Origin: Streptomyces yangpuensis
Lineage (GTDB): Bacteria > Actinomycetota > Actinomycetes > Streptomycetales > Streptomycetaceae
Direction: 5' to 3'
Length of the DNA: 64,000 nt
NCBI RefSeq assembly: GCF_001005295.1
Contig: NZ_LBMK01000006.1
Span: forward strand, 211,110-275,109
Within the stretch, counting starts at the first letter, position 1. The number at the start of each line of letters is the position of its first letter. The notes under the pieces were generated by a model. That model ran no database searches, was not told the origin of the DNA, and saw nothing but the letters and a program-made list of their open reading frames with translations. The position numbers were made by a program, and so were the translations under genes. Below are positions 52,642-64,000 of this stretch, piece after piece.

Positions 52642-55098
52642 ATGGCCCGCCGCAGCACGAAGACCCCGCCGCCGGAGGATTTCGAGGAGAAGATCCTCGA
52701 CATCGACGTCGTCGACGAAATGCAGGGCTCCTTCCTCGAGTACGCGTACTCGGTGATCTACTCCCGTGCCCTGCCCGACGCCCGGGACGGCATGAAGCCG
52801 GTGCACCGGCGCATCGTCTACCAGATGAACGAGATGGGGCTGCGTCCCGACCGCGGGTACGTGAAGTGCGCCCGCGTCGTCGGCGAGGTCATGGGCAAGC
52901 TCCACCCGCACGGCGACGCCTCCATCTACGACGCCCTCGTGCGCATGGCCCAGCCCTTCTCGATGCGCCTGCCGCTGGTCGACGGCCACGGCAACTTCGG
53001 TTCGCTCGGCAACGACGACCCGCCGGCCGCGATGCGCTACACCGAGTGCCGGATGGCCGACGCCACGTCGCTGATGACGGAGTCGATCGACGAGGACACC
53101 GTCGACTTCACCGCCAACTACGACGGCCAGGAGCAGGAGCCGGTGGCGCTGCCCGCCGCCTACCCGAACCTGCTGGTCAACGGCGCGTCCGGGATCGCGG
53201 TCGGCATGGCGACCAACATGCCCCCGCACAACCTCGGCGAGGTCATCGCCGCCGCCCGCCACCTGATCCGCTACCCGCACGCGGACCTGGAGGCGCTGAT
53301 GCGCTTCGTCCCGGGTCCCGACCTGCCGACGGGCGGCCGGATCGTCGGGCTCTCGGGCATCAAGGACGCCTACGAGAACGGCCGCGGCTCCTTCAAGATC
53401 CGCGCGACGGTGACCGTGGAGAACGTGACGGCCCGCCGCAAGGGTCTGGTCGTCACCGAACTGCCCTTCACGGTCGGCCCCGAGAAGGTCATCGCGAAGA
53501 TCAAGGACCTGGTCGGCTCCAAGAAGCTGCAGGGCATCGCCGACGTCAAGGACCTCACCGACCGCGCCCACGGCCTGCGCCTGGTCATCGAGATCAAGAA
53601 CGGCTTCCACCCGGAGGCCGTGCTGGAGCAGCTCTACAAGCTGACGCCGATGGAGGAGTCCTTCGGCATCAACAACGTGGCGCTGGTGGACGGGCAGCCG
53701 CTCACCCTCGGCCTCAAGGAGCTGCTGGAGGTCTACCTCGACCACCGCTTCGAGGTCGTCCGGCGGCGCAGCGAGTTCCGCCGCACCAAGCGCCGGGACC
53801 GGCTGCACCTCGTCGAGGGCCTGCTGGTGGCCCTCATCGACATCGACGAGGTCATCCGGCTCATCCGCGACAGCGAGAACTCCGCCCAGGCCAAGGCCCG
53901 GCTCATGGAGCGGTTCTCGCTGAGCGAGACCCAGACCCAGTACATCCTGGACACCCCGCTGCGCCGGCTCACCAAGTTCGACCGCCTGGAGCTGGAGTCC
54001 GAGCGCGACCGGCTGACGGGCGAGATCGACGAGCTGACCGGGATCCTGGAGTCGGACAACGAGCTGCGCAAGCTGGTCTCCGCGGAACTGGCCGCCGTCG
54101 CCAAGAAGTTCGGCACCGAGCGCCGTACGGTCCTGCTGGAGTCGGCGGGCACCGCGGTGGCGGCCGTCCCGCTGGAGGTCGCGGACGACCCGTGCCGGGT
54201 GCTGCTGTCCTCGACGGGCCTGCTGGCCCGTACGGCGAACGGCGAGCCGCTGCCGCAGGACGAGGGCGGCGCCCGGGCCAAACACGACCTGATCGTCTCG
54301 CAGGTCGCCGCGACCGCACGGGCCGACGTGGGCGTGGTCACCTCCGCGGGCCGGCTGCTGCGGCTCTCGGTGATCGACCTGCCGCAGCTGCCGGACACGC
54401 ACGCCGCGCCCAACCTCGCGGGCGGTGCGCCGGTCTCGGAGTTCCTCTCCGGGCTGGAGCCGGACGAGAAGGTGATCTGCCTGACCTCGCTGGACGAGTC
54501 CTCGCAGGGGCTGGCGCTGGGCACCGAGCAGGGCGTGGTCAAGCGCGTCGTGCCGGACTACCCGGCCAACAAGGACGAGCTGGAGGTCATCACCCTCAAG
54601 GACGGTGACCGGATCGTCGGCGCGGTCGAGCTGCGCACGGGCGAGGAGGACCTGGTCTTCATCACCGACGACGCCCAGCTGCTGCGCTACCCGGCGGGCC
54701 AGGTGCGCCCGCAGGGCCGCCCGGCGGGCGGTATGGCGGGCATCAAGCTCTCCCAGAACGCCAAGGTGATCCACTTCTCGGCGGTCGACCCGGGCCGGGA
54801 CGCCGTGGTGTTCACGGTGGCCGGTTCGCACGGGACCCTGGACGACTCGATGCTGTCGGGGAAGCTGACCCCCTTCGACCAGTACCCACGCAAGGGCCGG
54901 GCCACCGGCGGCGTGCGCTGCCAGCGGTTCCTGAAGGGCGAGGACCTGCTGGTGCTGGCCTGGGCCGGCGGCGCGCCCGCCCGGGCGGCGGCGGCGAACG
55001 GCGCCCCGGCCGAGCTGCCGGCGACCGATCCGCGCCGGGACGGCTCGGGGGCGCCGCTGCCGGCGGCGGTGGCGACGCTGGCAGGGCCCGCACTGTAG
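52642..55098 (+). CDS. parC: DNA topoisomerase IV subunit A
   Basis: The 818-residue protein is a type IIA topoisomerase A subunit. [12 protein letters not shown], the breakage-reunion Tyr133 ([10 protein letters not shown]), [17 protein letters not shown] (quinolone region) and a C-terminal beta-pinwheel (from about 500) ending in an acidic/Ala/Gly tail are visible. At the position equivalent to GyrA Ser83 there is Ala93, and Asp97 matches GyrA Asp87. It lacks the GyrA box near 530 as far as I can see, which favours ParC. The gene is divergent from the M16 operon. Confidence 0.88.
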
Positions 55099-55109
55099 GA
55101 GGTTCCAGA

Positions 55110-55150
55110 CCGTTCGGGTGGTACGTCCGGGGGACGTATCACCCGAACGG
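55110..55150 (+). terminator. Terminator after parC
   Basis: A long hairpin of 19 pairs (one G-U) with a GGG loop spans 55110-55150, 12 bases past the parC stop. The sequence after it reads ACTAGTGTTTTCC, a short T-tract. It separates parC from the nuclease-TerD gene. Confidence 0.85.
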
Positions 55151-55205
55151 CGACTAGTGTTTTCCCTCTTGGCACTGTCGGGTGGGGCGGGAGAACACAG
55201 AGCTG

Positions 55206-57296
55206 ATGAGTCGTCGGTCGGGCGGACTGATCGGGGACTGGGCCGAGGCCCAGCGCCGGATGCAGCAGACGCAGCAGATCCAGCACCGCGAGGCGGAACA
55301 CCGGCAGCGCGCGTACGAACGGGAGGCGGCCCGGGGGCAGCGCGAGCAGCAGGCCGCCTACCGGCAGCATCGCGAGGCCGAGGCACGACGGCGGACGGAG
55401 CGCATCGAGGCGGAGGTCGCCGCGCTCCAGGGACTGCTGGCCGCGGGCTGCCGGGCACCGGCGTTCCGTACGGCCGCACTGGTCAGGCCGGAGCAGCTGG
55501 AGCCCTTCGCCCCGGGGAATCTCGCCCACCCGCTGCCGATGCCGCGCCTTGAGCAGTTCCAGCAGCAGAGCAGCGGCTGGACCCTCGGCCCGAACCGCCG
55601 GGCGCAGGCGGAGCGCGAGGCACACGCCCGCTACACCCAGGCCTGGCAGGCGGCGCACGCTGCGGAGATGCAACGGCAGCAGCAACTGACGGCCTACCGG
55701 CAGCAGTACGACCGGTGGGCGGCGCAGCAGCTTGCCGGAATCCGGGAGCACAACAACGGTCTCGCCGAGCTGGCCAGGGCGCTGCGCGCGGGTGACGCAG
55801 AGGCCGCCGTGGAGTACTTCTCGGCCGCCCTCTTCGCTTCCACCGCCTGGCCCGAGGCGCTGCCGAGACAGCTGGCCGCCGCGTACGATCCGGGCGCGCG
55901 CGAGCTGGTGCTGGACTGGCAGCTGCCGGGCTTCCAGGTGGTGCCCGAGGCCAAGTCGGTCCGGTACATGCCGAGCACGGACCAGGACAAGGAGACGGCT
56001 CGCCCCGCCACGCAACGTCGCGCCCTGTACCGGGACCTGCTGGCGCAGTGCCTGCTGCTGGTGGTGCACGAGCTCTACGCGGCGGACGAGTTCGGCGCGC
56101 TGGAGTCCGTCGTGGTCAACGGCTTCGTGGACGACCACGATCCGGTGACCGGGCAGGAGGCGCGCATCGTGCTCGCCTCGGTGCCGGCGCCGCGCAGCAC
56201 CTTCACCGGGCTCCGGCTGGAGCAAGTCAGCGCGGTGGACTGCCTGGTGGAGGGGTTGCGCGGACAGCTGTCGGCGCGGCCCGACCAGCTGACGGCCGTA
56301 CGCGCCGGGCGCAGGCCCGACGAGGTCGGCGGCGGAGTCGTCAGCCACGGCGGGCACACGGGCGACGAGGAGGACGAGCCGGACCTCTTCGCCATGGACC
56401 CGATCGCCTTCGAGAACCTGGTGGCGGAGCTCTTCCGGGCGATGGGCATGGAGGCGGTCACCACACAGCGGTCCGGCGACGGCGGCGTCGACATCGAGGC
56501 GAACGACCCTTCCCCGATCACCGGCGGCCGGATCGTGGTCCAGGTCAAGCGCTACCGCAACACCGTGCCGCCCACCGCGGTACGGGACCTGTACGGCACG
56601 GTCCAGGACAAGGGCGCGAACAAGGGGGTGCTGGTCACCACCTCGTCCTTCGGGCCGACGTCGTACACATTCTCCAACGGCAAGCCGCTGGAGTTGGTTC
56701 CCGGGGAGAAGCTGGTGGAGCTCCTGCACCAGTACGGGCTGCGCGGGCGCCTCGGCGGCGGCCCGGGGGCGTCGGCCCCGGCGCGGCGCGCTCCCGATCC
56801 CGAGCCGTCGGCCGACCACAACGTGCTCGGCATGTCCTGGTCCGGCCGGGTCGCTCTGGACGTGTGCGCCCTGGTCTGCGCGGGCAACCGGGTGCTCAGC
56901 GAGGACCACTTCGTGTTCTTCAACAACCCGCGCACACCGGACGGTTCGGTACGCGCCCGGGCGCACGCGGCGCCCGACAAGGCGGCGCTGGAGGTCTCCT
57001 TCGACGCGCTGCCGCGCGAGGCCGACCGGCTGGTGCTCGTGGCCGCCGTCGACCCGGAGGCCGATCCGCACGCCGACCTGGCCGGTTTCACCGATGCCCG
57101 GATCCGGCTGCTGGACTCGGCGGGCACGGAGGCAGGGCAGCTGGAGGTCTCCGACGGCCGGGCCGGGGAGACCGCGCTGGTGCTCGGCTCGTTCCGGCGC
57201 CGGTCGAACGGCGACTGGGACTTCGTGATCGGCGGCAAGGGCTACCGGGGCGGCCTGGAGGACCTGCTGCGCGAGTACGGCGTCGAGGTCGCCTAA
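55206..57296 (+). CDS. Mrr-type nuclease fused to a TerD domain
   Basis: The 696-residue protein starts with a Gln/Arg-rich coiled coil (1-70), followed by an unrecognised helical and beta region (75-385). An Mrr-like restriction endonuclease domain (392-515) has FENLVAELF, DGGVDIEAND and QVKRYRN forming the PD-(D/E)xK site. A C-terminal TerD domain (541-696) has LDVCALVCAGNRVLSEDHFVFFNNP and the calcium-type acidic cluster. The ATG at 55206 was preferred over a GTG at 55182. TerD domains bind Ca2+ and occur in stress and phage-defence systems. No methylase is nearby. Confidence 0.9.
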   Translation: MSRRSGGLIGDWAEAQRRMQQTQQIQHREAEHRQRAYEREAARGQREQQAAYRQHREAEARRRTERIEAEVAALQGLLAAGCRAPAFRTAALVRPEQLEPFAPGNLAHPLPMPRLEQFQQQSSGWTLGPNRRAQAEREAHARYTQAWQAAHAAEMQRQQQLTAYRQQYDRWAAQQLAGIREHNNGLAELARALRAGDAEAAVEYFSAALFASTAWPEALPRQLAAAYDPGARELVLDWQLPGFQVVPEAKSVRYMPSTDQDKETARPATQRRALYRDLLAQCLLLVVHELYAADEFGALESVVVNGFVDDHDPVTGQEARIVLASVPAPRSTFTGLRLEQVSAVDCLVEGLRGQLSARPDQLTAVRAGRRPDEVGGGVVSHGGHTGDEEDEPDLFAMDPIAFENLVAELFRAMGMEAVTTQRSGDGGVDIEANDPSPITGGRIVVQVKRYRNTVPPTAVRDLYGTVQDKGANKGVLVTTSSFGPTSYTFSNGKPLELVPGEKLVELLHQYGLRGRLGGGPGASAPARRAPDPEPSADHNVLGMSWSGRVALDVCALVCAGNRVLSEDHFVFFNNPRTPDGSVRARAHAAPDKAALEVSFDALPREADRLVLVAAVDPEADPHADLAGFTDARIRLLDSAGTEAGQLEVSDGRAGETALVLGSFRRRSNGDWDFVIGGKGYRGGLEDLLREYGVEVA

Positions 57297-57458
57297 GAAC
57301 TGTCCCGTCATCCCCGGCGGATCAGCGCGCGGCGTCAGATGCGGTGCATCGCAAGGCGGAGGGGCGTCCTCATATCGGGCATATTCGGGCATTCCGACAA
57401 CGCGGCGAGGTGCCGTAGCCGTCGTCGTGCGCCCGCCGGGGATGACGGGCCAGCCCTT
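57295..57458. mobile_element. MITE-like element with terminal inverted repeats
   Basis: Perfect 17-bp inverted repeats (57304-57320 and 57433-57449), extendable outward to about 26 bp with three mismatches, flank 112 bases that carry no credible gene. The left repeat starts at the stop codon of the nuclease gene and the right one ends 2 bases before the COG0523 stop. No transposase is present. It resembles the small non-coding repeats scattered in Streptomyces genomes. A long-range stem in the 3' UTR is the alternative. Confidence 0.55.
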
Positions 57459-57460
57459 GG

Positions 57461-58588
57461 CTAGACCCTGTCGTCAACCTCTGCGTCCGGGTCGGGCACC
57501 CCTTCGGCCTCGATCTCGACCTCTGCTTCAGCTTCGGGCGGGGCCGCGGGCCGGGGCCGGTCCACGTAGCGGAGCACGCCCCACATGCTCTCGGGGTTCG
57601 CGTCCTGCGGGGCTTCCTCTCGGCAGGCCTCCAACGCGCGCACCAGTCCCTCGCCGTCGGTGCCCGCGCCGATCAGGACCAGCTGCGTCAGGCGTGCTTC
57701 GCCCCGCCCCCAGGGCTGCGGGGCGAAGCGCAGGAAGCGGCCGACCGCCTGGACCTCGTAGCGCTCGTCGTGTCCGGGGACCCCGAACCACACGAAGCCC
57801 TTGATCCGGTAGAGCCCGGCCGGCCGCCGGTCGAGGAAGTCCATGAACCGGCGCGGGGAGAGGGCCTGCTCCGAGCGGAACTCCGTGCTCTCGTAGGCGG
57901 TGTGCGCGTGGGCACAGTGGTCGTGACCCTCGGCCTCCGCGAGGAGGTCCTCGAAGGACAGCTGTCCCCGGGTCTCGGTCCAGGGCCGGCGGTCGAAGAG
58001 CAGTTCCGGGTCGATACGGCCGTGGTCGGCGCCCACGACCGGGGTGCCCGGCCCACAGAGCGCGGCCAGTTCGGTCTCGATCCTGGCCTGTTCGCGCGCG
58101 TCGACCCGGTCGGTCTTGTTGAGCACCACCAGGTCCGCGACGGCGAGGTGGCGGTCGGTCTCCGGGTGCCGGGCCCTGGTCCCGTCGAACTCCGCCGCGT
58201 CCACGACCTGCACCATGCCGCCGTACCGGACGGCCGGGTTCTCGCTGGCCACCAGCATGCGGATCATTTCCTGGGGTTCGGCCAGGCCGCTCGCCTCGAT
58301 GACGATCACGTCGATCCGGTGGACGGGCGCGGAGAGCTTCTCCAGGTAGGCGTCCAGCTCGCTGCCGTCGACGGCGCAGCACAGGCAGCCGCCCCCGAGG
58401 GAGACCATCGAGTCCCCGACCTGGCCGGCCACCGACATCGCGTCGATCTCGATGGATCCGAAGTCGTTGACGACGACCCCGATGCGGGTGCCGCCGCGGC
58501 TCGCCAGGAGATGGTTCAGCATTGTGGTCTTCCCGGATCCGAGGAATCCGGCGAGGACGACGACGGGGATGGGCTGCCTGCTGTTCAC
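57461..58588 (-). CDS. COG0523 CobW/HypB/UreG-family metallochaperone GTPase
   Basis: The protein of about 375 residues is a G3E P-loop GTPase: Walker A GFLGSGKTT near 11-19, the CxCC metal motif GGCLCCA near 68-74, EASGLAEP, and NKTD (LNKTDRVD). The C-terminal CobW_C domain has FMDFLDRRPAGLYRIKGFVWF. COG0523 proteins deliver Zn, Co or other metals to client enzymes. A His-containing stretch GHDHCAHAH (about 240-250) could bind metal. The GTG at 58588 gives the normal N-terminus; no good RBS is seen. It follows the citrate synthase gene by 31 bases. Confidence 0.92.
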   Translation of the reverse strand: MNSRQPIPVVVLAGFLGSGKTTMLNHLLASRGGTRIGVVVNDFGSIEIDAMSVAGQVGDSMVSLGGGCLCCAVDGSELDAYLEKLSAPVHRIDVIVIEASGLAEPQEMIRMLVASENPAVRYGGMVQVVDAAEFDGTRARHPETDRHLAVADLVVLNKTDRVDAREQARIETELAALCGPGTPVVGADHGRIDPELLFDRRPWTETRGQLSFEDLLAEAEGHDHCAHAHTAYESTEFRSEQALSPRRFMDFLDRRPAGLYRIKGFVWFGVPGHDERYEVQAVGRFLRFAPQPWGRGEARLTQLVLIGAGTDGEGLVRALEACREEAPQDANPESMWGVLRYVDRPRPAAPPEAEAEVEIEAEGVPDPDAEVDDRV

Positions 58589-58619
58589 CCGGTCGATCGT
58601 AGTCAGGCCCGGCGCCCGG

Positions 58620-59780
58620 TCAGTCCAGCAGCGGCACCGGCTGCGGCGGGGTGGGTCCCGTGTACCGGGCGGCAGGCCGGATGATCTTCGAATCGGTGGC
58701 CTGCTCCAGGATGTTCGCGCTCCAGCCGACGACCCGGGCGGCACAGAAGGTCGGGGTGAACATCTCACGCGGCAGTCCGCACAGCTCCATGACCACGCCT
58801 GCGTAGAACTCCACGTTGGTGTGCAGTTCCCGGCCCGGCTTCAGCTCGGCGAGGATCTCCTCCACCTGGCGCTCGACCTCCACGGCGAAGTCCACGAGGG
58901 GGCCGCCGAAGCCGAGGGCGATGTCGCGCAGCATGCGCGAGCGGGGGTCCTCGGTGCGGTAGACGGGGTGCCCGAAGCCCATGATCCGGTCGCCGGCGAG
59001 GACCCGTTCACGGATCCACGGCCCGATCCGGTCCACGGTGCCGATCGCGTCGAGGGTGTCCAGGGCCCGGCTGGGGGCGCCTCCGTGCAGCGGGCCGGAG
59101 AGCGCGCCGATGGCCCCGGTCAGGCAGGCGGCGACGTCGGCGCCGGTGGAGGCGATCACGCGGGCGGTGAACGTCGACGCGTTGAAGCCGTGGTCGACGG
59201 TGGATATCAGGTACCGCTCGACCGCGCGGGCGCGGACCGGATCGGGCTCCTCGCCGGTCAGCATGTAGAGGTAGTTGGCGGCGTACGGGAGGTCCTCGCG
59301 AGGCTCGACCGGCTCCAGGCCCAGGCCCAGCCGGTGCAGGGCGGTCAGCAGAGTCGGCACCGCGGCGCAGGCGGCCAGGGCGTCCGCCGCGCGGCGCGCC
59401 GGGTCGAGGTCGTACACCGGACGGAAGCCGGCGGACGCGCCGAGCAGCGAGAGCGCGGTGCGCAGCCCGGCAAGCGGTCCGGAGAGCCGGCCGGCGCGGG
59501 CGATGCCCGGCAGGGCCTCGCGCACCTCGTCGGGCAGTCGGCGCAGCCCGGCGGTCTCGGCGGCGAAGGCGGCCCGCTCGGCGGCGTCCGCCGGGAGCGT
59601 GCCGCGGAACATCAGGTGCCACACGTCCTCGAAACTGCGGCCGGCGGCGAGCTCCACGGCCGAGTACTGGCGGTAGTGGTAGAAGCCCTCGCGGCCCCGG
59701 ACGTCGCCCAGCTCGGTCTCGGTGACCACGACTCCCGCGAGGCCCCGCGGTCCTTCGATGGTGGTGTCGGTGGTGTTCAT
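58620..59780 (-). CDS. Citrate synthase family protein (Asp to Glu at active site)
   Basis: The 386-residue protein has the citrate synthase pattern. GPLHGGAPSRAL (His274 equivalent) and MGFGHPVYRTEDPR (His320 equivalent) are intact. The third catalytic motif reads NVEFYAGVV, with Glu in place of the usual Asp375. It may make citrate or methylcitrate from acyl-CoA and an oxoacid, or have altered specificity. The ATG at 59780 was chosen; the frame continues 17 codons upstream (an ATG at 59792 is possible). It is divergent from an HTH-fused paralogue 80 bases away. Confidence 0.88.
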   Translation of the reverse strand: MNTTDTTIEGPRGLAGVVVTETELGDVRGREGFYHYRQYSAVELAAGRSFEDVWHLMFRGTLPADAAERAAFAAETAGLRRLPDEVREALPGIARAGRLSGPLAGLRTALSLLGASAGFRPVYDLDPARRAADALAACAAVPTLLTALHRLGLGLEPVEPREDLPYAANYLYMLTGEEPDPVRARAVERYLISTVDHGFNASTFTARVIASTGADVAACLTGAIGALSGPLHGGAPSRALDTLDAIGTVDRIGPWIRERVLAGDRIMGFGHPVYRTEDPRSRMLRDIALGFGGPLVDFAVEVERQVEEILAELKPGRELHTNVEFYAGVVMELCGLPREMFTPTFCAARVVGWSANILEQATDSKIIRPAARYTGPTPPQPVPLLD

Positions 59781-59799
59781 GCATCGACCATCCATGATG

Positions 59800-59829
59800 G
59801 ATTCAATCCGTGTCAATGTTGATTGAATC
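59800..59829. promoter_or_regulatory. Perfect inverted repeat between citrate synthase paralogues
   Basis: GATTCAATC (59800-59808) and GATTGAATC (59821-59829) are perfect inverse copies 12 bases apart, in a noticeably AT-rich divergent promoter. They sit 19 bases before the first gene's start and 31 bases before the second's. This is a good operator candidate for the HTH domain of the HTH-citrate synthase protein. Confidence 0.65.
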
Positions 59830-59860
59830 AATGCATGCGTCCATCTGTAGGGTGTTCGGC

Positions 59861-61096
59861 ATGAGTGACCAGACGGACGGCGGACGCAGGCTCAGCACGC
59901 AGGAGGCGGCGCGGGTGCTCGGCGTCAAGCCGGCGACGGTGTACGCCTATGTCAGCCGGGGCCAGCTGGCCAGCCGCCGCGATCCGGCCGGGCGGGGCAG
60001 CAGCTTCGACGCCGCCGAGGTGGAGGCGCTGGCCCGCCGCAGCCGGCGCGAGGCGGCGGCTCCCGCCGCCGGCGAGCTCTCCGTCCGCACGGCGCTCACC
60101 CTCATCGAACCCGACCGGTTCTACTTCCGGGGCGTCGATGCCGTGGCCCTGGCCTCGCGGTACCGCTACGAGGAGGTCGCCGAGTGGCTCTGGACGGGAA
60201 CGCTCACCCCGGGGACCCGGTTCACCGCTCCCCCGGAGGTGCTGGAGGCGGCCCGCCGGGCGGTGGACGCCCTGCCGGCGCACAGCGGCCCGGTCGACCG
60301 TCTGCGGGTGGCGGTCGCCGCCGCCGCGGTCGCGGATCCGCTGCGCTTCGACCTGTCGGAGGAGGCCGTGCTCGGCTCCGCCCGCTGCCTGATCCCGACG
60401 CTGGCCGGCGCACTGCCCGCGGTGGGCGCCGGGTGGGCCGGTGACGGCCGGATCGCCCGGCAGCTGTGGTCCCGGCTGACCCCGCGGGAGCCGGACCCGG
60501 ACGCCCTCGCCGTGCTGGACCTGGCGCTGGCGCTGCTGGTCGACCACGACCTGGCCGCCTCCACACTGGCCGTACGGGTGGCGGCGTCGGCGCGCGCGCA
60601 TCCGTACGCGGCGGTGTCGGCCGGGCTCGGCGCCCTCGAAGGGCCGCTGCACGGCGCCGCCGGGCGGCTCGCGCACCGGATGCTGGTGGAGGTCCTCGAA
60701 CAGGGCGGAGCCGCGCCGGTGATCGCCGAGTACCTGCGGGCCGGACGCCGGGTCCCGGGCCTGGGCCACCGCCTCTACCAGGGCCAGGACCCCCGGGCGG
60801 GGGCGTTGTTCGCCCGCCTGGAAGGGCTGGACCAGGCCGGTCCCGCTCTGGCCGCGGCCCGCGAGGTGGCCTCGGTGATGGCCCGTCAGGGCGGGCCGCA
60901 CGCCAACGTGGACCTGGCGCTGGCGGTCCTGACGGTGTCGTGCGGCATGGCCGCCGAGGCCGGGGAGACGGTCTTCGCGGTGGCCCGCACGGCGGGCTGG
61001 ATCGCCCACGCGCTGGAGGAGTACCAGGAACGCCCCCTGCGCATGCGGCCGAGCGGCCAGTACCACGGGCCCCGCCCGCCCCGGCCGATGCCCTGA
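59861..61096 (+). CDS. Citrate synthase fused to a helix-turn-helix domain
   Basis: The 411-residue protein begins with an excisionase/MerR-like helix-turn-helix (about 10-55: RLSTQEAARVLGVKPATVYAYVSRGQLASRRDP), followed by a citrate synthase domain (75-400). That domain has GPLHGAAGRLAHRM, PGLGHRLYQGQDPR and NVDLALAVLTV, which retains the catalytic Asp lost in the paralogue. This pairing suggests a regulator that senses a citrate synthase ligand. The ATG at 59861 was preferred because the upstream frame runs through the inverted repeat. Divergent from the other paralogue. Confidence 0.9.
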   Translation: MSDQTDGGRRLSTQEAARVLGVKPATVYAYVSRGQLASRRDPAGRGSSFDAAEVEALARRSRREAAAPAAGELSVRTALTLIEPDRFYFRGVDAVALASRYRYEEVAEWLWTGTLTPGTRFTAPPEVLEAARRAVDALPAHSGPVDRLRVAVAAAAVADPLRFDLSEEAVLGSARCLIPTLAGALPAVGAGWAGDGRIARQLWSRLTPREPDPDALAVLDLALALLVDHDLAASTLAVRVAASARAHPYAAVSAGLGALEGPLHGAAGRLAHRMLVEVLEQGGAAPVIAEYLRAGRRVPGLGHRLYQGQDPRAGALFARLEGLDQAGPALAAAREVASVMARQGGPHANVDLALAVLTVSCGMAAEAGETVFAVARTAGWIAHALEEYQERPLRMRPSGQYHGPRPPRPMP

Positions 61097-61214
61097 ACGA
61101 CGTCCGCCGCCGTCCCACCGGTGGCGACCGGACCACGCGGGACGTGAGTGGCGTATCCGACAAGCGGGGCGCGAACGTTCCGCTCGGGCCGGGGCCGACC
61201 TACCGTTGCTGCCC

Positions 61215-62831
61215 ATGCGGTTCCCCCACATGAGCGCTCGGCGCCTCGGGCTGCCCAGACGGGCGGTCTCGCAGATCCTCCTGACCCAGCTGGCCATCGC
61301 CGCCGGTGTCGTCGTCCTGGCCACGGGACTGTTCCTCGCGCCGCTCGGCGCCCAGCTCGACGACCAGGCCATGCGGCGCGCCCTGGCCATCGCACAGAGC
61401 GCCGCCGCCGACCCCGCGATCGCCGCCGGCCTCCTGGACTCCGAGGCATCGGCGGACGGCCCGGTGCAGGCCTCCGCCGAACGGATCCGCCGGGCGACCG
61501 GCGCCGAGTACGTGGTCGTCCTCGACCTGGACGGCATCCGCCGCTCGCACCCCAGCCCCGACCGGATCGGGCTGCCCGTCTCCACCGACCCCGGCGACGC
61601 CCTGGCCGGCCGCGAGGTCATGGAGATCGACGACGGCACCCTGGGACGCTCCGCACGCGGCAAGGTCCCGCTCCTCGCCGCCGACGGCGAGATCGTCGGC
61701 GCGGTCTCCGTCGGCATCGCCTACGACAGCGTCCGCGACCGCCTGCTCGGGGCCGTCCCGGGCCTGCTCGCCTACGCCGGCGGCGCCCTGGCCGCGGGCG
61801 CCCTCGCCGCCTACCTCCTCTCCCGCAGGATCCAGCGCCAGACCCGTGACCTGGCCTTCTCCGACATAGCCGGCCTGCTCGCCGAACGCGAGGCCATGCT
61901 GCACTCCATCCGCGAAGGCGTGATCGCCCTCGCCCCGGACGGCCGCGTCCGGCTGGTCAACGACGAGGCCGCCCGCCTGCTGGGCCTCGCCCCGGACTCC
62001 CCCGGCGCCTTCGCTGGCCGCCCGCTGGACGACGTCCTCACCGCCGGCCGCACCGCCGACGTGCTCTCCGGCCGCGTGTCGGGCCGGGACCTGCTCACCG
62101 TCCAGGGCCCCCGCGTCCTGGTCGCCAACCGCATGCCCACCGCGGACGGAGGCGCCGTCGCCACCCTGCGCGACCGCACCGAGCTGGAACACCTGAGCCG
62201 CGAACTCGACTCCACCCGTGGTCTGATCGACGCACTGCGCGCCCAGGACCACGAGCACGCCAACCGCCTCCACACCCTCCTCGGCCTGCTGGAGCTGGGC
62301 CTGCACGAGGAGGCGGTGGAATTCGTCACCGAAGTCGTCGGCGTGCACCGCACGACCGCGGAACAGGTCACCGAGAAGGTCCACGACCCGCTGCTCGCCG
62401 CCCTGCTCGTGGGCAAGGCGACGGTCGCCGCCGAACGCGGCATCCCCCTGCGGCTGGCGTCCGCCACCCTCCTTCCCGACCGCCTGGTCGACCCGGGCGG
62501 GCTCGTCACGATCGTCGGCAACCTGGTGGACAACGCCCTGGACGCCGCCGCCGGCGGAGCGGCGCCCTGGGTCGAGGTGGAACTGCGCGCGGAGGGCCGC
62601 ACCGCCGTCCTGCGGGTGCGCGACAGCGGCCCCGGAGTCCCCGCCGGGCGCCGCGAGGAGATCTTCACCGAGGGCTGGTCGACCAAGCAGCCCAGGGCCC
62701 ACCGCGAGCGCGGGCTGGGCCTCGCCCTCGTACGCCGCCTCGCGGAGCGGCAGGGCGGCAGCGCCCGGGCCGGTGAAGCAGCGGACGGAGGGGCGGAATT
62801 CTCCGTCGTACTCCCGGAGGCCCTGCGATGA
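61215..62831 (+). CDS. CitA/DcuS-type sensor histidine kinase
   Basis: The protein of about 538 residues has an N-terminal membrane helix (about 20-45), a periplasmic PAS-like sensor (50-175: YVVVLDLDGIRRSHPSPDRIGLPV) and a second helix (180-205). A cytoplasmic PAS (230-320) is followed by the unusual kinase core DHEHANRLHTLLGLLELG with the phospho-accepting His near 355, and a HATPase domain. This is the CitA/DcuS group, which senses C4- and C6-carboxylates. ATG at 61230 is an alternative start. It overlaps the regulator by 4 bases (ATGA). Confidence 0.9.
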   Translation: MRFPHMSARRLGLPRRAVSQILLTQLAIAAGVVVLATGLFLAPLGAQLDDQAMRRALAIAQSAAADPAIAAGLLDSEASADGPVQASAERIRRATGAEYVVVLDLDGIRRSHPSPDRIGLPVSTDPGDALAGREVMEIDDGTLGRSARGKVPLLAADGEIVGAVSVGIAYDSVRDRLLGAVPGLLAYAGGALAAGALAAYLLSRRIQRQTRDLAFSDIAGLLAEREAMLHSIREGVIALAPDGRVRLVNDEAARLLGLAPDSPGAFAGRPLDDVLTAGRTADVLSGRVSGRDLLTVQGPRVLVANRMPTADGGAVATLRDRTELEHLSRELDSTRGLIDALRAQDHEHANRLHTLLGLLELGLHEEAVEFVTEVVGVHRTTAEQVTEKVHDPLLAALLVGKATVAAERGIPLRLASATLLPDRLVDPGGLVTIVGNLVDNALDAAAGGAAPWVEVELRAEGRTAVLRVRDSGPGVPAGRREEIFTEGWSTKQPRAHRERGLGLALVRRLAERQGGSARAGEAADGGAEFSVVLPEALR

Positions 62832-63529
62832 ACGAGACCCCGATCCACGTATTGGTCGTCGACGACGACATGCGTGTTGCCCTGATCAACGCGGCGTACG
62901 TGGCGAAGGTTCCCGGTTTCCGGGTGGTGGCGCAGGCCCATTCGGCTGCGGAGGCACTGGACTTCCTCTCCGTCCACCCCGTGGATCTGGTCCTCCTGGA
63001 CCACTACCTCCCCGACGGCAGCGGCCTGGACCTGGTCCGCCGCCTGCGCCAGCGCGGCGACGGCACCGATGTGATCATGGTCACCGCCGCCCGGGACCTC
63101 GCCACCGTGCAGGCAGCCATGCGCCTCGGGGCCCTCCAGTACCTGGTCAAGCCGTTCACCTTCGCCGGGCTGCGTGCCCGGCTGGAGGCGTACGGCTCGC
63201 TGCGCCGCACCCTGGACACGGGCGGTGAGGCCGAACAGGCCGAGGTGGACCGGATCTTCGGCGCCCTCGCCGGTGCGAGCTCCGTGAACGAACTCCCCAA
63301 GGGCCACTCCCCCACCACGGCGGAGCTGGTCCGCCAGGTCCTGCGCTCCGCCGACGGCCCCCTGTCCACCCAGCAGATCGCCGACCGGGCGGGCATCAGC
63401 CGGCAGACCGCCCAGCGCTACCTGAAACTCCTCGAACGCTCCGGCCGCGTCTCGCTGGCCCTGCGTTACGGGGAGACCGGCCGCCCGGAGCACCGCTACA
63501 CCTGGCTCCCGCCGCAGGGCCCGGCCTGA
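62828..63529 (+). CDS. CitB/DcuR-type response regulator
   Basis: The 233-residue regulator has a receiver domain (VVDDDMRVALIN, phospho-acceptor Asp near 57 in LVLLDHYLPDG, Lys in LVKPFTF). A C-terminal IclR/DeoR-like helix-turn-helix (STQQIADRAGISRQTAQRYLKLLE) follows. It is coupled to the CitA-type kinase. With a sodium:solute symporter gene just downstream on the opposite strand, the system probably controls carboxylate uptake in response to the external acid. Confidence 0.93.
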   Translation: MNETPIHVLVVDDDMRVALINAAYVAKVPGFRVVAQAHSAAEALDFLSVHPVDLVLLDHYLPDGSGLDLVRRLRQRGDGTDVIMVTAARDLATVQAAMRLGALQYLVKPFTFAGLRARLEAYGSLRRTLDTGGEAEQAEVDRIFGALAGASSVNELPKGHSPTTAELVRQVLRSADGPLSTQQIADRAGISRQTAQRYLKLLERSGRVSLALRYGETGRPEHRYTWLPPQGPA

Positions 63530-63596
63530 CGCCTCCGGCCGGGCTCCGTCGACCGGGCCCCTCCGGTTGCCGCGCCTCCGCTCGGATGCCCGCGGC

Positions 63597-64000
63597 TCAG
63601 ACCGCTCCGGCGCCCGTCAGCGAACGGACCTCCGTCTCCGCGTACTTGGCCTCGTCCGGTTCCTCGCCCGAGGTGACCGTGCCCAGCCAGCCGGCCAGGA
63701 AGCCCAGCGGGATCGAGACGATACCCGGGTTCTGCAACGGGAAGAGCTGGAAGTCCACAGCCGGGAACAGCGACTCCGGGCTGCCCGACACCACGGGCGA
63801 GACCACCACGAGCAGCACGGCCGGGACCAGGCCCCCGTACACCGACCAGACGGCTCCCCGCGTGGTGAATCCGCGCCAGAAGAGCGAGTACAGCAGCACC
63901 GGCAGGTTGGCCGAGGCGGCCACCGCGAAGGCCAGTCCCACCAGGAACGCCACGTTCAGGTCCTGGGCGAGCAGTCCGAGGGCGATGGCCACCGCCCCGA
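63597..64000 (-). CDS. Sodium:solute symporter (ActP-like), 3' part
   Basis: The last 134 or so codons of a solute:sodium symporter are visible, and the frame is open at the right edge. LGLLAQDLNVAFLVGLAFAVAASANLPVLLYSLFWRGFTTRGAVWSVYGGL matches ActP/MctP acetate and monocarboxylate symporters. FPLQNPGIVSIPLGFLAGWLGT and a Glu-rich tail close the protein. At least three membrane helices are in this part. It ends 67 bases from the response regulator gene, which may control it. Confidence 0.85.
   Translation of the reverse strand, partial: GAVAIALGLLAQDLNVAFLVGLAFAVAASANLPVLLYSLFWRGFTTRGAVWSVYGGLVPAVLLVVVSPVVSGSPESLFPAVDFQLFPLQNPGIVSIPLGFLAGWLGTVTSGEEPDEAKYAETEVRSLTGAGAV

What the first reader, a model, noticed from the sequence alone, without database searches (positions are those of the whole stretch)
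58620..61096. Divergent citrate-synthase pair, one fused to a DNA-binding HTH, with an operator-like repeat
The plus-strand paralogue begins with a MerR/Xis-like HTH and keeps the catalytic residues; the minus-strand one has Glu for the catalytic Asp (NVEFY). A perfect 9-bp inverted repeat lies between them. Inference: the fusion senses acetyl-CoA/oxaloacetate or citrate and controls both genes. A CitA-type sensor follows directly, adding to a carboxylate-sensing theme.
Basis: partly seen in the sequence, partly recalled or inferred. Interest (0 to 1): 0.7.

Follow-up and report, generated by a model that had tools for sequence, protein, structure and literature searches.

The report
Gene regulators built from citrate synthase
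A citrate-synthase-like protein carrying a DNA-binding head sits beside a conserved DNA signal in several kinds of bacteria, which suggests that an old metabolic enzyme was turned into a family of gene switches; no description of it turned up in the papers searched.

Summary
The pair is real. The plus gene (59861-61096) is a winged HTH fused to a complete citrate-synthase (CS) fold. The minus gene (58620-59780) is a CS whose Glu at the catalytic Asp is fixed in its family (108/108 rows), not a lesion. The conserved signal overlaps it: core GTCAATGTTGAT (59812-59823) plus half-site ATCAAT (59827-59832); the core motif is in 79/80 relatives.

This signal follows the HTH-CS gene across phyla while the divergent neighbour changes. 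A matrix trained only on Streptomyces has its best hit of a whole 9-13 kb locus in the HTH-CS upstream gap in 16/21 Pseudomonadota/Deinococcota loci (shuffled matrices: mean 1.8). In 296 class genomes, all 32 exact sites in HTH-CS genomes lie at that locus or at a mobile copy of its CS target. The 41 HTH-CS domains sampled form one group.

Best reading: a family of one-component regulators that sense through a CS active site. Ligand, sign and residual catalysis are unknown. The nearby DcuS/CitA-type kinase was found near it only in Streptomyces.

The parts
59861..61096 (+). HTH-CS: 411-aa protein, winged HTH fused to a citrate-synthase domain; proposed regulator
   Evidence: Pfam HTH_17 + Citrate_synt; matches in 53 of 296 class genomes, own included; AlphaFold2 model pLDDT 85.3, CS fold Z 35.3
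59891..60040 (+). HTH_17 domain (residues 11-60), recognition-helix region ATVYAYVSRG
   Evidence: T[VL]YAYVSRG-type helix nearly invariant among relatives
60077..61051 (+). Citrate-synthase domain (residues 73-397), active-site residues H229, H264, H303, R312, D351, R376, R396 present
58620..59780 (-). Partner citrate synthase (386 aa, PRK12350 subfamily, Glu324 at the catalytic Asp position); proposed target gene
59781..59860 (.). Divergent intergenic control region (80 bp)
   Evidence: starts set by alignment to relatives
59812..59823 (+). Operator core GTCAATGTTGAT (imperfect palindrome RTCAA-NN-TTGAY)
   Evidence: motif in 79 of 80 named relatives; unique as exact match in own genome; same class of element in Pseudomonadota and Deinococcota
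59827..59832 (+). Third half-site ATCAAT, 3 nt after the core (spacing differs by lineage)
59811..59816 (-). Predicted -35 hexamer TTGACA of the partner CS promoter, overlapping the operator core (by eye)
   Evidence: sequence; TGTCAA conserved in 77 to 79 of 79 rows per column
59848..59853 (+). Candidate -10 TAGGGT of HTH-CS, 7 nt before its ATG (possibly leaderless; by eye)
   Evidence: sequence; TACGGT shortly before the ATG in several relatives
59800..59829 (.).
   Evidence: exact in 1 of 79 relatives tested
61206..62831 (+). DcuS/CitA-type sensor histidine kinase (neighbour, not judged part of the system)
   Evidence: synteny
62828..63529 (+). DcuR/DpiA-type response regulator (neighbour, not judged part of the system)

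Best explanation
HTH-CS is a one-component, enzyme-derived transcription factor. A winged HTH at its N-terminus binds the operator RTCAA-NN-TTGAY plus a third RTCAA half-site, and a dimeric citrate-synthase domain serves as the ligand sensor. In Streptomyces it controls mainly the divergent partner CS gene, whose likely -35 hexamer (TTGACA) is part of the operator. In other bacteria the same regulator type controls other divergent metabolic genes. Shown computationally: domain make-up, single grouping of the sampled fusions in a tree, a shared operator that tracks the regulator and not the target, and its place in the target promoter. Inferred: direct binding by HTH-CS, dimer arrangement, a ligand in the CS pocket (an oxo- or hydroxy-di/tricarboxylate, an acyl-CoA or a CS product). 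The sign is unresolved; repression lifted by ligand is slightly favoured because the operator covers the target's -35.
For: (a) Operator prediction across phyla: a matrix from 7 distinct Streptomyces 14-mers has its best hit of the locus in the HTH-CS upstream gap in 16 of 21 Pseudomonadota/Deinococcota loci, 11 of 14 taking one per genus; column-shuffled matrices give a mean of 1.76 of 21, the reversed matrix 1. In three of the five misses (L167, L182, L183) the best hit is in the divergent promoter before the same-strand gene run that ends with HTH-CS. (b) In 28 of 30 non-Streptomyces Actinomycetota loci the best hit of the locus also lies within 300 nt upstream of HTH-CS. (c) Specificity: 38 exact sites in 296 genomes; 32 lie in 31 HTH-CS genomes, all at the HTH-CS/CS locus or, once, at a mobile CS copy. 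(d) Targets differ while the site stays. (e) 41 HTH-CS domains are one side of a branch, SH-aLRT 100. (f) 45 of 47 genomes with the partner CS also have HTH-CS. (g) Arg329 and Arg401 equivalents are kept in 156 of 156 HTH-CS, even where catalytic residues are gone.
Against: No binding, expression or ligand data exist here. MtrA binds a probe from this intergenic region in S. coelicolor (PMC12323332, passages), so another regulator acts there too. Two Streptomyces (G018, G112) keep an intact-looking HTH-CS without CS and without any exact operator in the genome, so the gene can persist without this target. 22 of 53 HTH-CS genomes lack the exact motif. Of these 22, 17 had their upstream region fetched: 14 show a variant (eight of them with a degenerate first half-site), G018 and G112 show nothing and G131 could not be read. 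Two fusions (L166, L168) and L196 lack the canonical site. One of the 28 first ranks (L146) is a partly matching site, not a clean core. Most HTH-CS keep the full catalytic set, so an enzymatic role is not excluded. One of 500 shuffled matrices also reached 16 of 21. In the own genome 19 one-mismatch cores (reversed control 3) were not followed.
Confidence: 0.8

Rival explanations
1. HTH-CS is a trigger enzyme: a still active citrate or methylcitrate synthase-like enzyme that also represses or activates its neighbour, with DNA binding coupled to turnover or substrate occupancy.
For: Catalytic residues are kept in most members: His274eq 154 of 156, His320eq 151 of 156, Asp375eq 154 of 156; complete CS fold.
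Against: Members L030, L031, L033 and L195 lack the His320 equivalent, and L166 and L168 lack most of the catalytic set, yet keep the HTH and the Arg residues. The Asn242 equivalent is Ala in 126 of 156.
Confidence: 0.3
2. The conserved element is the site of another, global regulator (MtrA, GlnR or the like) and the HTH of the fusion is irrelevant to it.
For: EMSA of MtrA on the SCO5831-SCO5832 intergenic probe (PMC12323332, passages).
Against: The published MtrA site TTGACTTAACTGTCCA resembles the neighbouring conserved block (13 of 16 letters of the consensus at -40 to -25), not the operator core. The operator follows HTH-CS into Pseudomonadota and Deinococcota with unrelated targets, and exact sites in HTH-CS genomes occur only at this locus and once at a mobile CS copy, which does not suit a global regulator.
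Confidence: 0.06
3. The two genes are simply co-inherited isozymes; the HTH is a relic, and the motif is a conserved promoter.
For: The motif contains the likely -35 of the CS gene.
Against: The same motif lies before genes unrelated to CS, together with HTH-CS. It includes a third half-site whose spacing is lineage-specific, not expected of a -35/-10 promoter.
Confidence: 0.04

Closest known systems
Citrate synthase family PF00285 (B. subtilis CitA, M. tuberculosis CitA, PrpC)
   Same: Whole CS fold and active-site residues; the partner is in NCBIfam PRK12350 and shares Glu with a B. subtilis CS (2c6x)
   Different: HTH-CS carries a winged HTH, forms its own group and sits as a regulator would, with its own operator
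Enzyme-derived one-component regulators (BirA, PutA, MocR/PdxR, ROK, B. subtilis PurR; recalled)
   Same: Works like them: a metabolic-enzyme fold joined to DNA binding at a divergent target
   Different: No citrate-synthase-fold member was seen in the listings of the literature searches made here
MerR-type / excisionase-type (HTH_17) DNA-binding domains, e.g. BldC (recalled)
   Same: HTH_17 domain above cut-off; MerR and excise models hit below cut-off; modelled HTH with a strand pair, residues 10-66
   Different: The effector is a CS domain; the operator lies at and upstream of the predicted target -35, not shown to be in the -35/-10 spacer
SCO5831/SCO5832 (citA3/citA4) of S. coelicolor
   Same: Citrate-synthase pair before the two-component system SCO5829/5828 (PMC9739823 and PMC12323332, passages read)
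   Different: In the passages read they are treated as citrate synthases, with no mention of an HTH or of regulation by them

Membership tests
Citrate synthase (PF00285) | Profile match over the whole domain | tested here: met
   Minus gene 354.9 bits, plus gene 211 bits, cut-off 27
Citrate synthase (PF00285) | Catalytic His, His, Asp | tested here: met
   Plus gene: all three. Minus gene: both His, but Asp is Glu, as in all 108 partner rows with the column
Citrate synthase (PF00285) | Citrate synthase activity | not testable with these tools
   No assay
PRK12350 citrate synthase subfamily (partner gene) | NCBIfam cut-off score | tested here: met
   333.7 bits against 332; Ensifer partner 476 bits
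MerR family regulator | MerR/MerR_1 profile above cut-off | tested here: not met
   23.6 against 28.2 and 21.0 against 21.6 bits
MerR family regulator | Operator within a 19-20 bp -35/-10 spacer | tested here: inconclusive
   The operator core overlaps the predicted -35 and extends upstream of it; no mapped transcription start
One-component enzyme-derived regulator (works-like class) | DNA-binding and ligand-binding domains in one chain | tested here: met
   HTH_17 and Citrate_synt in one chain; CS fold in the model
One-component enzyme-derived regulator (works-like class) | Own operator that travels with the regulator | tested here: met
One-component enzyme-derived regulator (works-like class) | Ligand-dependent DNA binding | not testable with these tools
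   Needs EMSA and ligand assays
CitA/DcuS two-component partner | Conserved linkage to HTH-CS | tested here: not met
   Near in 63 of 80 named relatives and in the three Streptomyces loci L158-L160, but in none of 31 non-Streptomyces loci (E 1e-20, loci of limited length)

The most novel reading that the evidence does not exclude
A cross-phylum family of transcription factors (Actinomycetota, Pseudomonadota, Deinococcota) uses a complete citrate-synthase active site as a sensor. All descend from one fusion, share one operator code, and have been redeployed to control whichever 2-oxoacid, 2-hydroxyacid or acyl-CoA pathway lies divergently beside them.
Probability: 0.7. Interest if true: 0.82.

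Novelty: new variant of a known kind. Interest (0 to 1): 0.74.

Why it matters
Proteins annotated as 'citrate synthase' or 'citrate synthase family protein' in many records would be gene regulators. That would remove false isozymes from metabolic models and give a ready operator code for finding their targets. It would also supply a regulator type with a very well studied enzyme pocket, useful for metabolite biosensors. Because the same operator lies beside different pathways, each neighbour is a testable guess at the ligand. It also bears on why this genome and S. coelicolor (PMC12323332, passage) carry four citrate-synthase-like genes.

Tried and rejected
Glu as a lesion of this gene: rejected. 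Fusion and partner as a recent tandem duplication: not supported; HTH-CS domains group apart from partner CS (quick tree, SH-aLRT only, long branches L166, L168, L151; one own-genome row, L001, fell out because its reading frame was not recovered). A shared sensing module with the DcuS/CitA-type kinase: not supported by synteny. Other operator copies in the own genome: GTCAAYRTTGAT is unique as an exact match; 19 one-mismatch sites, more than the 3 of the reversed control, were not followed. Own other CS genes L001 and L003 lack the motif (best scores 8.5 and 6.7).

Structure search: the CS part matches at Z 35; the HTH part was barely tested by that search. Literature: no paper on an HTH-citrate synthase regulator in the listings (one search matched 4,314 papers, of which 10 were listed); only titles and abstract starts were seen, apart from four papers read in passages. 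A search for D375E with citrate synthase found nothing. The HTH-CS of Pseudomonadota and Deinococcota come from the plasmid collection only, so their chromosomes are unsampled.

Rows dropped or set by hand before counts: L146-L150 and L158-L160 (same places as L022, L023, L030, L034, L029, L012, L021, L016), L012 and L021 (no CS, no motif) and L016 were left out. L163 gave no N-terminal hit. In one search the gaps of L169, L170, L171 and L184 were set by eye because annotation is missing or starts overlap. In one search the promoter of the gene run, not the gap next to HTH-CS, was used for L167, L182 and L183. One of the 7 training 14-mers comes from a second site in L134. HTH-CS start positions are projected from alignment. 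The 80 named loci are the best 80 of 586 confirmed in a capped list; 78 are titled Streptomyces, one [Kitasatospora], one Actinobacteria bacterium.
Full report
WHAT IS IN THE WINDOW. The window lies in a 7.65-Mb Streptomyces-like genome (G000, contig 6) whose nearest named relative for this gene is Streptomyces virginiae (96% identity). The genome has four Citrate_synt genes. Two of them form the divergent pair. The plus gene, 59861-61096, encodes 411 aa: HTH_17 at residues 11-60 (E 2e-8) and Citrate_synt at residues 73-397 (211 bits). The minus gene, 58620-59780, encodes 386 aa (Citrate_synt 355 bits; just above the cut-off of NCBIfam PRK12350). The 80-bp gap between them is hidden in the raw ORF list because both frames stay open upstream. 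An AlphaFold2 model of the plus protein (mean pLDDT 85.3, pTM 0.78) shows an HTH with a strand pair at about residues 10-66 and, from residue 73 on, a citrate-synthase fold (VIA-align Z 35.3, rmsd 2.4 over 319 residues to P. aeruginosa PrpC; several CS within 1 Z unit).

ACTIVE SITES. Residue roles follow the pig citrate synthase numbering, which I recall. Among 156 HTH-CS proteins (at least 80 of them near relatives, so not independent) the equivalents of Arg329 and Arg401 are invariant (156/156), Arg421 is kept in 154, His274 in 154, His320 in 151, Asp375 in 154 and His238 in 152. The exceptions are informative. L030, L031, L033 and L195 lack the His320 equivalent. L168 (Cupriavidus) and L166 (Paraburkholderia) lack most of the catalytic set. 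All of these keep the HTH and the arginines. In the partner, Glu at the Asp375 position is present in 108 of 108 rows with that column (112 rows in all), including four alphaproteobacterial partners, and in a B. subtilis CS (alignment to 2c6x). The own genome's third CS (L003) also has NVEF.

CO-OCCURRENCE AND PHYLOGENY. In 296 class genomes HTH-CS occurs in 53 (E <= 1e-40) and the partner in 47 (E <= 1e-100); 45 have both. The two partner-only genomes are draft assemblies of about 500 and 880 contigs. Of the eight HTH-CS-only genomes three are Streptomyces that lost or are losing the CS gene. In a 73-row quick tree all 41 HTH-CS domains lie on one side of a branch (SH-aLRT 100), and partner CS group with ordinary CS, not as sister of HTH-CS.

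THE OPERATOR. Anchored alignment of 79 of 80 named intergenic regions shows two blocks of near-invariant columns: a promoter-side block for the CS gene and the element TGTCAATATTGATTGAATCAATA. The core RTCAA-NN-TTGAY (12 nt) is followed by a third half-site RTCAA. The gap after the core is 3 nt in 21 loci and 4 nt in 6 (Actinomycetota), 5 nt in 2, 6 nt in 13 (mostly one other actinobacterial group, plus Deinococcus) and 7 nt in 19, among them all 18 Pseudomonadota loci with a core (whose printed numbers are one higher). In this window the core is 59812-59823 and the third half-site 59827-59832. The core overlaps TTGACA (59811-59816, minus strand), the likely -35 of the CS gene. A TTGA[CT] box lies exactly 14 nt before the core in 63 of 79 relatives. 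A ribosome-binding-site-like string for CS was found in 59 of 79 and lies 43-44 nt away in 43 of these; the distance to the projected HTH-CS start ranges from 16 to 109 nt. So the element looks like part of the CS promoter. The exact core occurs once in the own genome.

THE ELEMENT FOLLOWS THE REGULATOR, NOT THE TARGET. Twenty-one HTH-CS loci of Pseudomonadota and Deinococcota plasmid or chromid records were read; 18 carry gene annotation. In 15 of these 18 the gene directly upstream is divergent: CS in Agrobacterium, Ensifer, Pararhizobium and Chelatococcus; CoA-transferase in Azospirillum (two) and Ewingella; 2-hydroxyacid dehydrogenase in two Comamonas; MFS transporter in Thioclava and Caballeronia; DUF2332 in Pseudoroseomonas; HMGL-like in Deinococcus; AtuA in Cupriavidus; a ring-hydroxylating oxygenase in Paraburkholderia fungorum. 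In the other three (L167, L182, L183) HTH-CS is the last gene of a same-strand run. In Actinomycetota beyond Streptomyces the divergent ORF is the partner CS in 22 of 30 loci; in four (L153, L161, L162, L198) it is an HMGL-like protein by sequence (only L161 profile-tested; best NCBIfam hit NifV homocitrate synthase, below cut-off).

A position matrix made only from 7 distinct Streptomyces 14-mers was then applied. In 16 of the 21 loci the best hit on both strands of the whole 9-13 kb locus lies in the HTH-CS upstream gap, on average 1.2% of the locus. With one locus per genus it is 11 of 14. Column-shuffled matrices give a mean of 1.76 (500 draws; one draw also reached 16) and the reversed matrix gives 1. 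Of the five misses, L167, L182 and L183 have the best hit at 2037, 2103 and 2090, in the divergent promoter before the gene run that ends with HTH-CS. The other two, L166 and L168, are the fusions with ruined active sites and a changed helix (YTY for YAY); by eye they carry TCGA variants. In 28 of 30 non-Streptomyces Actinomycetota loci the best hit lies within 300 nt upstream of the HTH-CS start (misses L147, rank 2, and L196, rank 28; the L146 hit is only a partial core). In all, 58 of the 73 loci tabulated have an exact RTCAANNTTGAY.

SPECIFICITY. The exact pattern GTCAAYRTTGATN{4,8}TCAAY has 38 sites in 37 of 296 class genomes. Thirty-one of these genomes have HTH-CS and hold 32 sites; all lie at the HTH-CS/CS locus, except one in front of a CS copy inside a mobile element in G208. 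One more lies beside the partner CS of G251. Five are in genomes without HTH-CS. The reversed pattern has one site. Twenty-two of the 53 HTH-CS genomes lack the exact pattern; of 17 of these whose upstream region was fetched, 14 show variants, while G018 and G112, which lost the CS gene, show nothing and G131 could not be read.

MECHANISM. Shown by computation: architecture, grouping, operator, promoter overlap. Inferred: HTH-CS binds the operator as a dimer or pair of dimers, and the CS pocket is the sensor, since the carboxylate-binding arginines are the most conserved part even where catalysis must be lost. The targets (acyl-CoA/2-oxoacid condensing enzymes, CoA-transferases, hydroxyacid dehydrogenases) fit a CS-like ligand. 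The sign is open; repression is slightly favoured by the overlap with the -35.

WHAT IS KNOWN. In S. coelicolor the corresponding pair is SCO5831/SCO5832 (citA3/citA4). That these are the orthologues, and that SCO5831 is the HTH-CS, is my inference from gene order; no S. coelicolor sequence was examined. MtrA binds a probe from between them (PMC12323332, passages); the predicted MtrA site resembles the neighbouring block, not the operator. SCO5831 is listed as a citrate-synthase-like protein in two more papers (PMC8981147, PMC7324645; passages). None of the passages mentions an HTH or regulation by this protein. The listings showed no description of such a regulator; the library lacks most subscription journals.

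VERDICT. Regulators made from enzymes are a known kind; a citrate-synthase-based family with an operator shared across phyla looks like a new variant.

Noticed in passing
L008/L225 and L224 (G101), L014/L221 and L223 (G208): In two Streptomyces the partner CS gene is interrupted after codon 49 and 40 (both ...EGFYHYRQ); the rest lies about 163 kb and 115 kb away. The sequence right after the break is nearly identical in both, which suggests that an integrative element uses this gene as its attachment site.
   Followed up: partly
L222 (G208:C53:673667-674893): The inserted stretch in G208 carries its own intact-looking CS copy with the same operator in front, while the only HTH-CS of that genome lies 20 kb away: a possible replacement target gene on a mobile element.
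   Followed up: partly
L012 and L021 (G018, G112); L016 (G261): Streptomyces that lost the CS gene keep HTH-CS; two have no exact operator anywhere in the genome, the third keeps the operator and a CS remnant.
   Followed up: partly
L003 (G000:C4:203748-204761): A third CS of the own genome also has Glu at the catalytic Asp (NVEF) and groups with the partner family.
   Followed up: no
L161, L153, L162, L198; L180: In some Actinomycetota and a Deinococcus the divergent gene is HMGL-like (L161 and L180 profile-tested) instead of CS: an unrelated fold whose known relatives also join acyl-CoA to 2-oxoacids (the last point recalled).
   Followed up: partly
L166 and L168: The two fusions with ruined active sites also have a changed recognition helix (YTY for YAY) and, by eye, TCGA-type sites, a possible specificity switch.
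   Followed up: partly
L022-L028, L032: One actinobacterial group keeps TTGAT and GTCAAT but has a degenerate first half-site (GATATATTGATTnnnGTCAATAT or similar).
   Followed up: no
52642-63992: parC, a CobW-type GTPase, this pair and the kinase form conserved synteny among the relatives (75, 77 and 63 of 80 loci, some cut by contig ends); a MctC/ActP-like transporter was seen in 41.
   Followed up: partly
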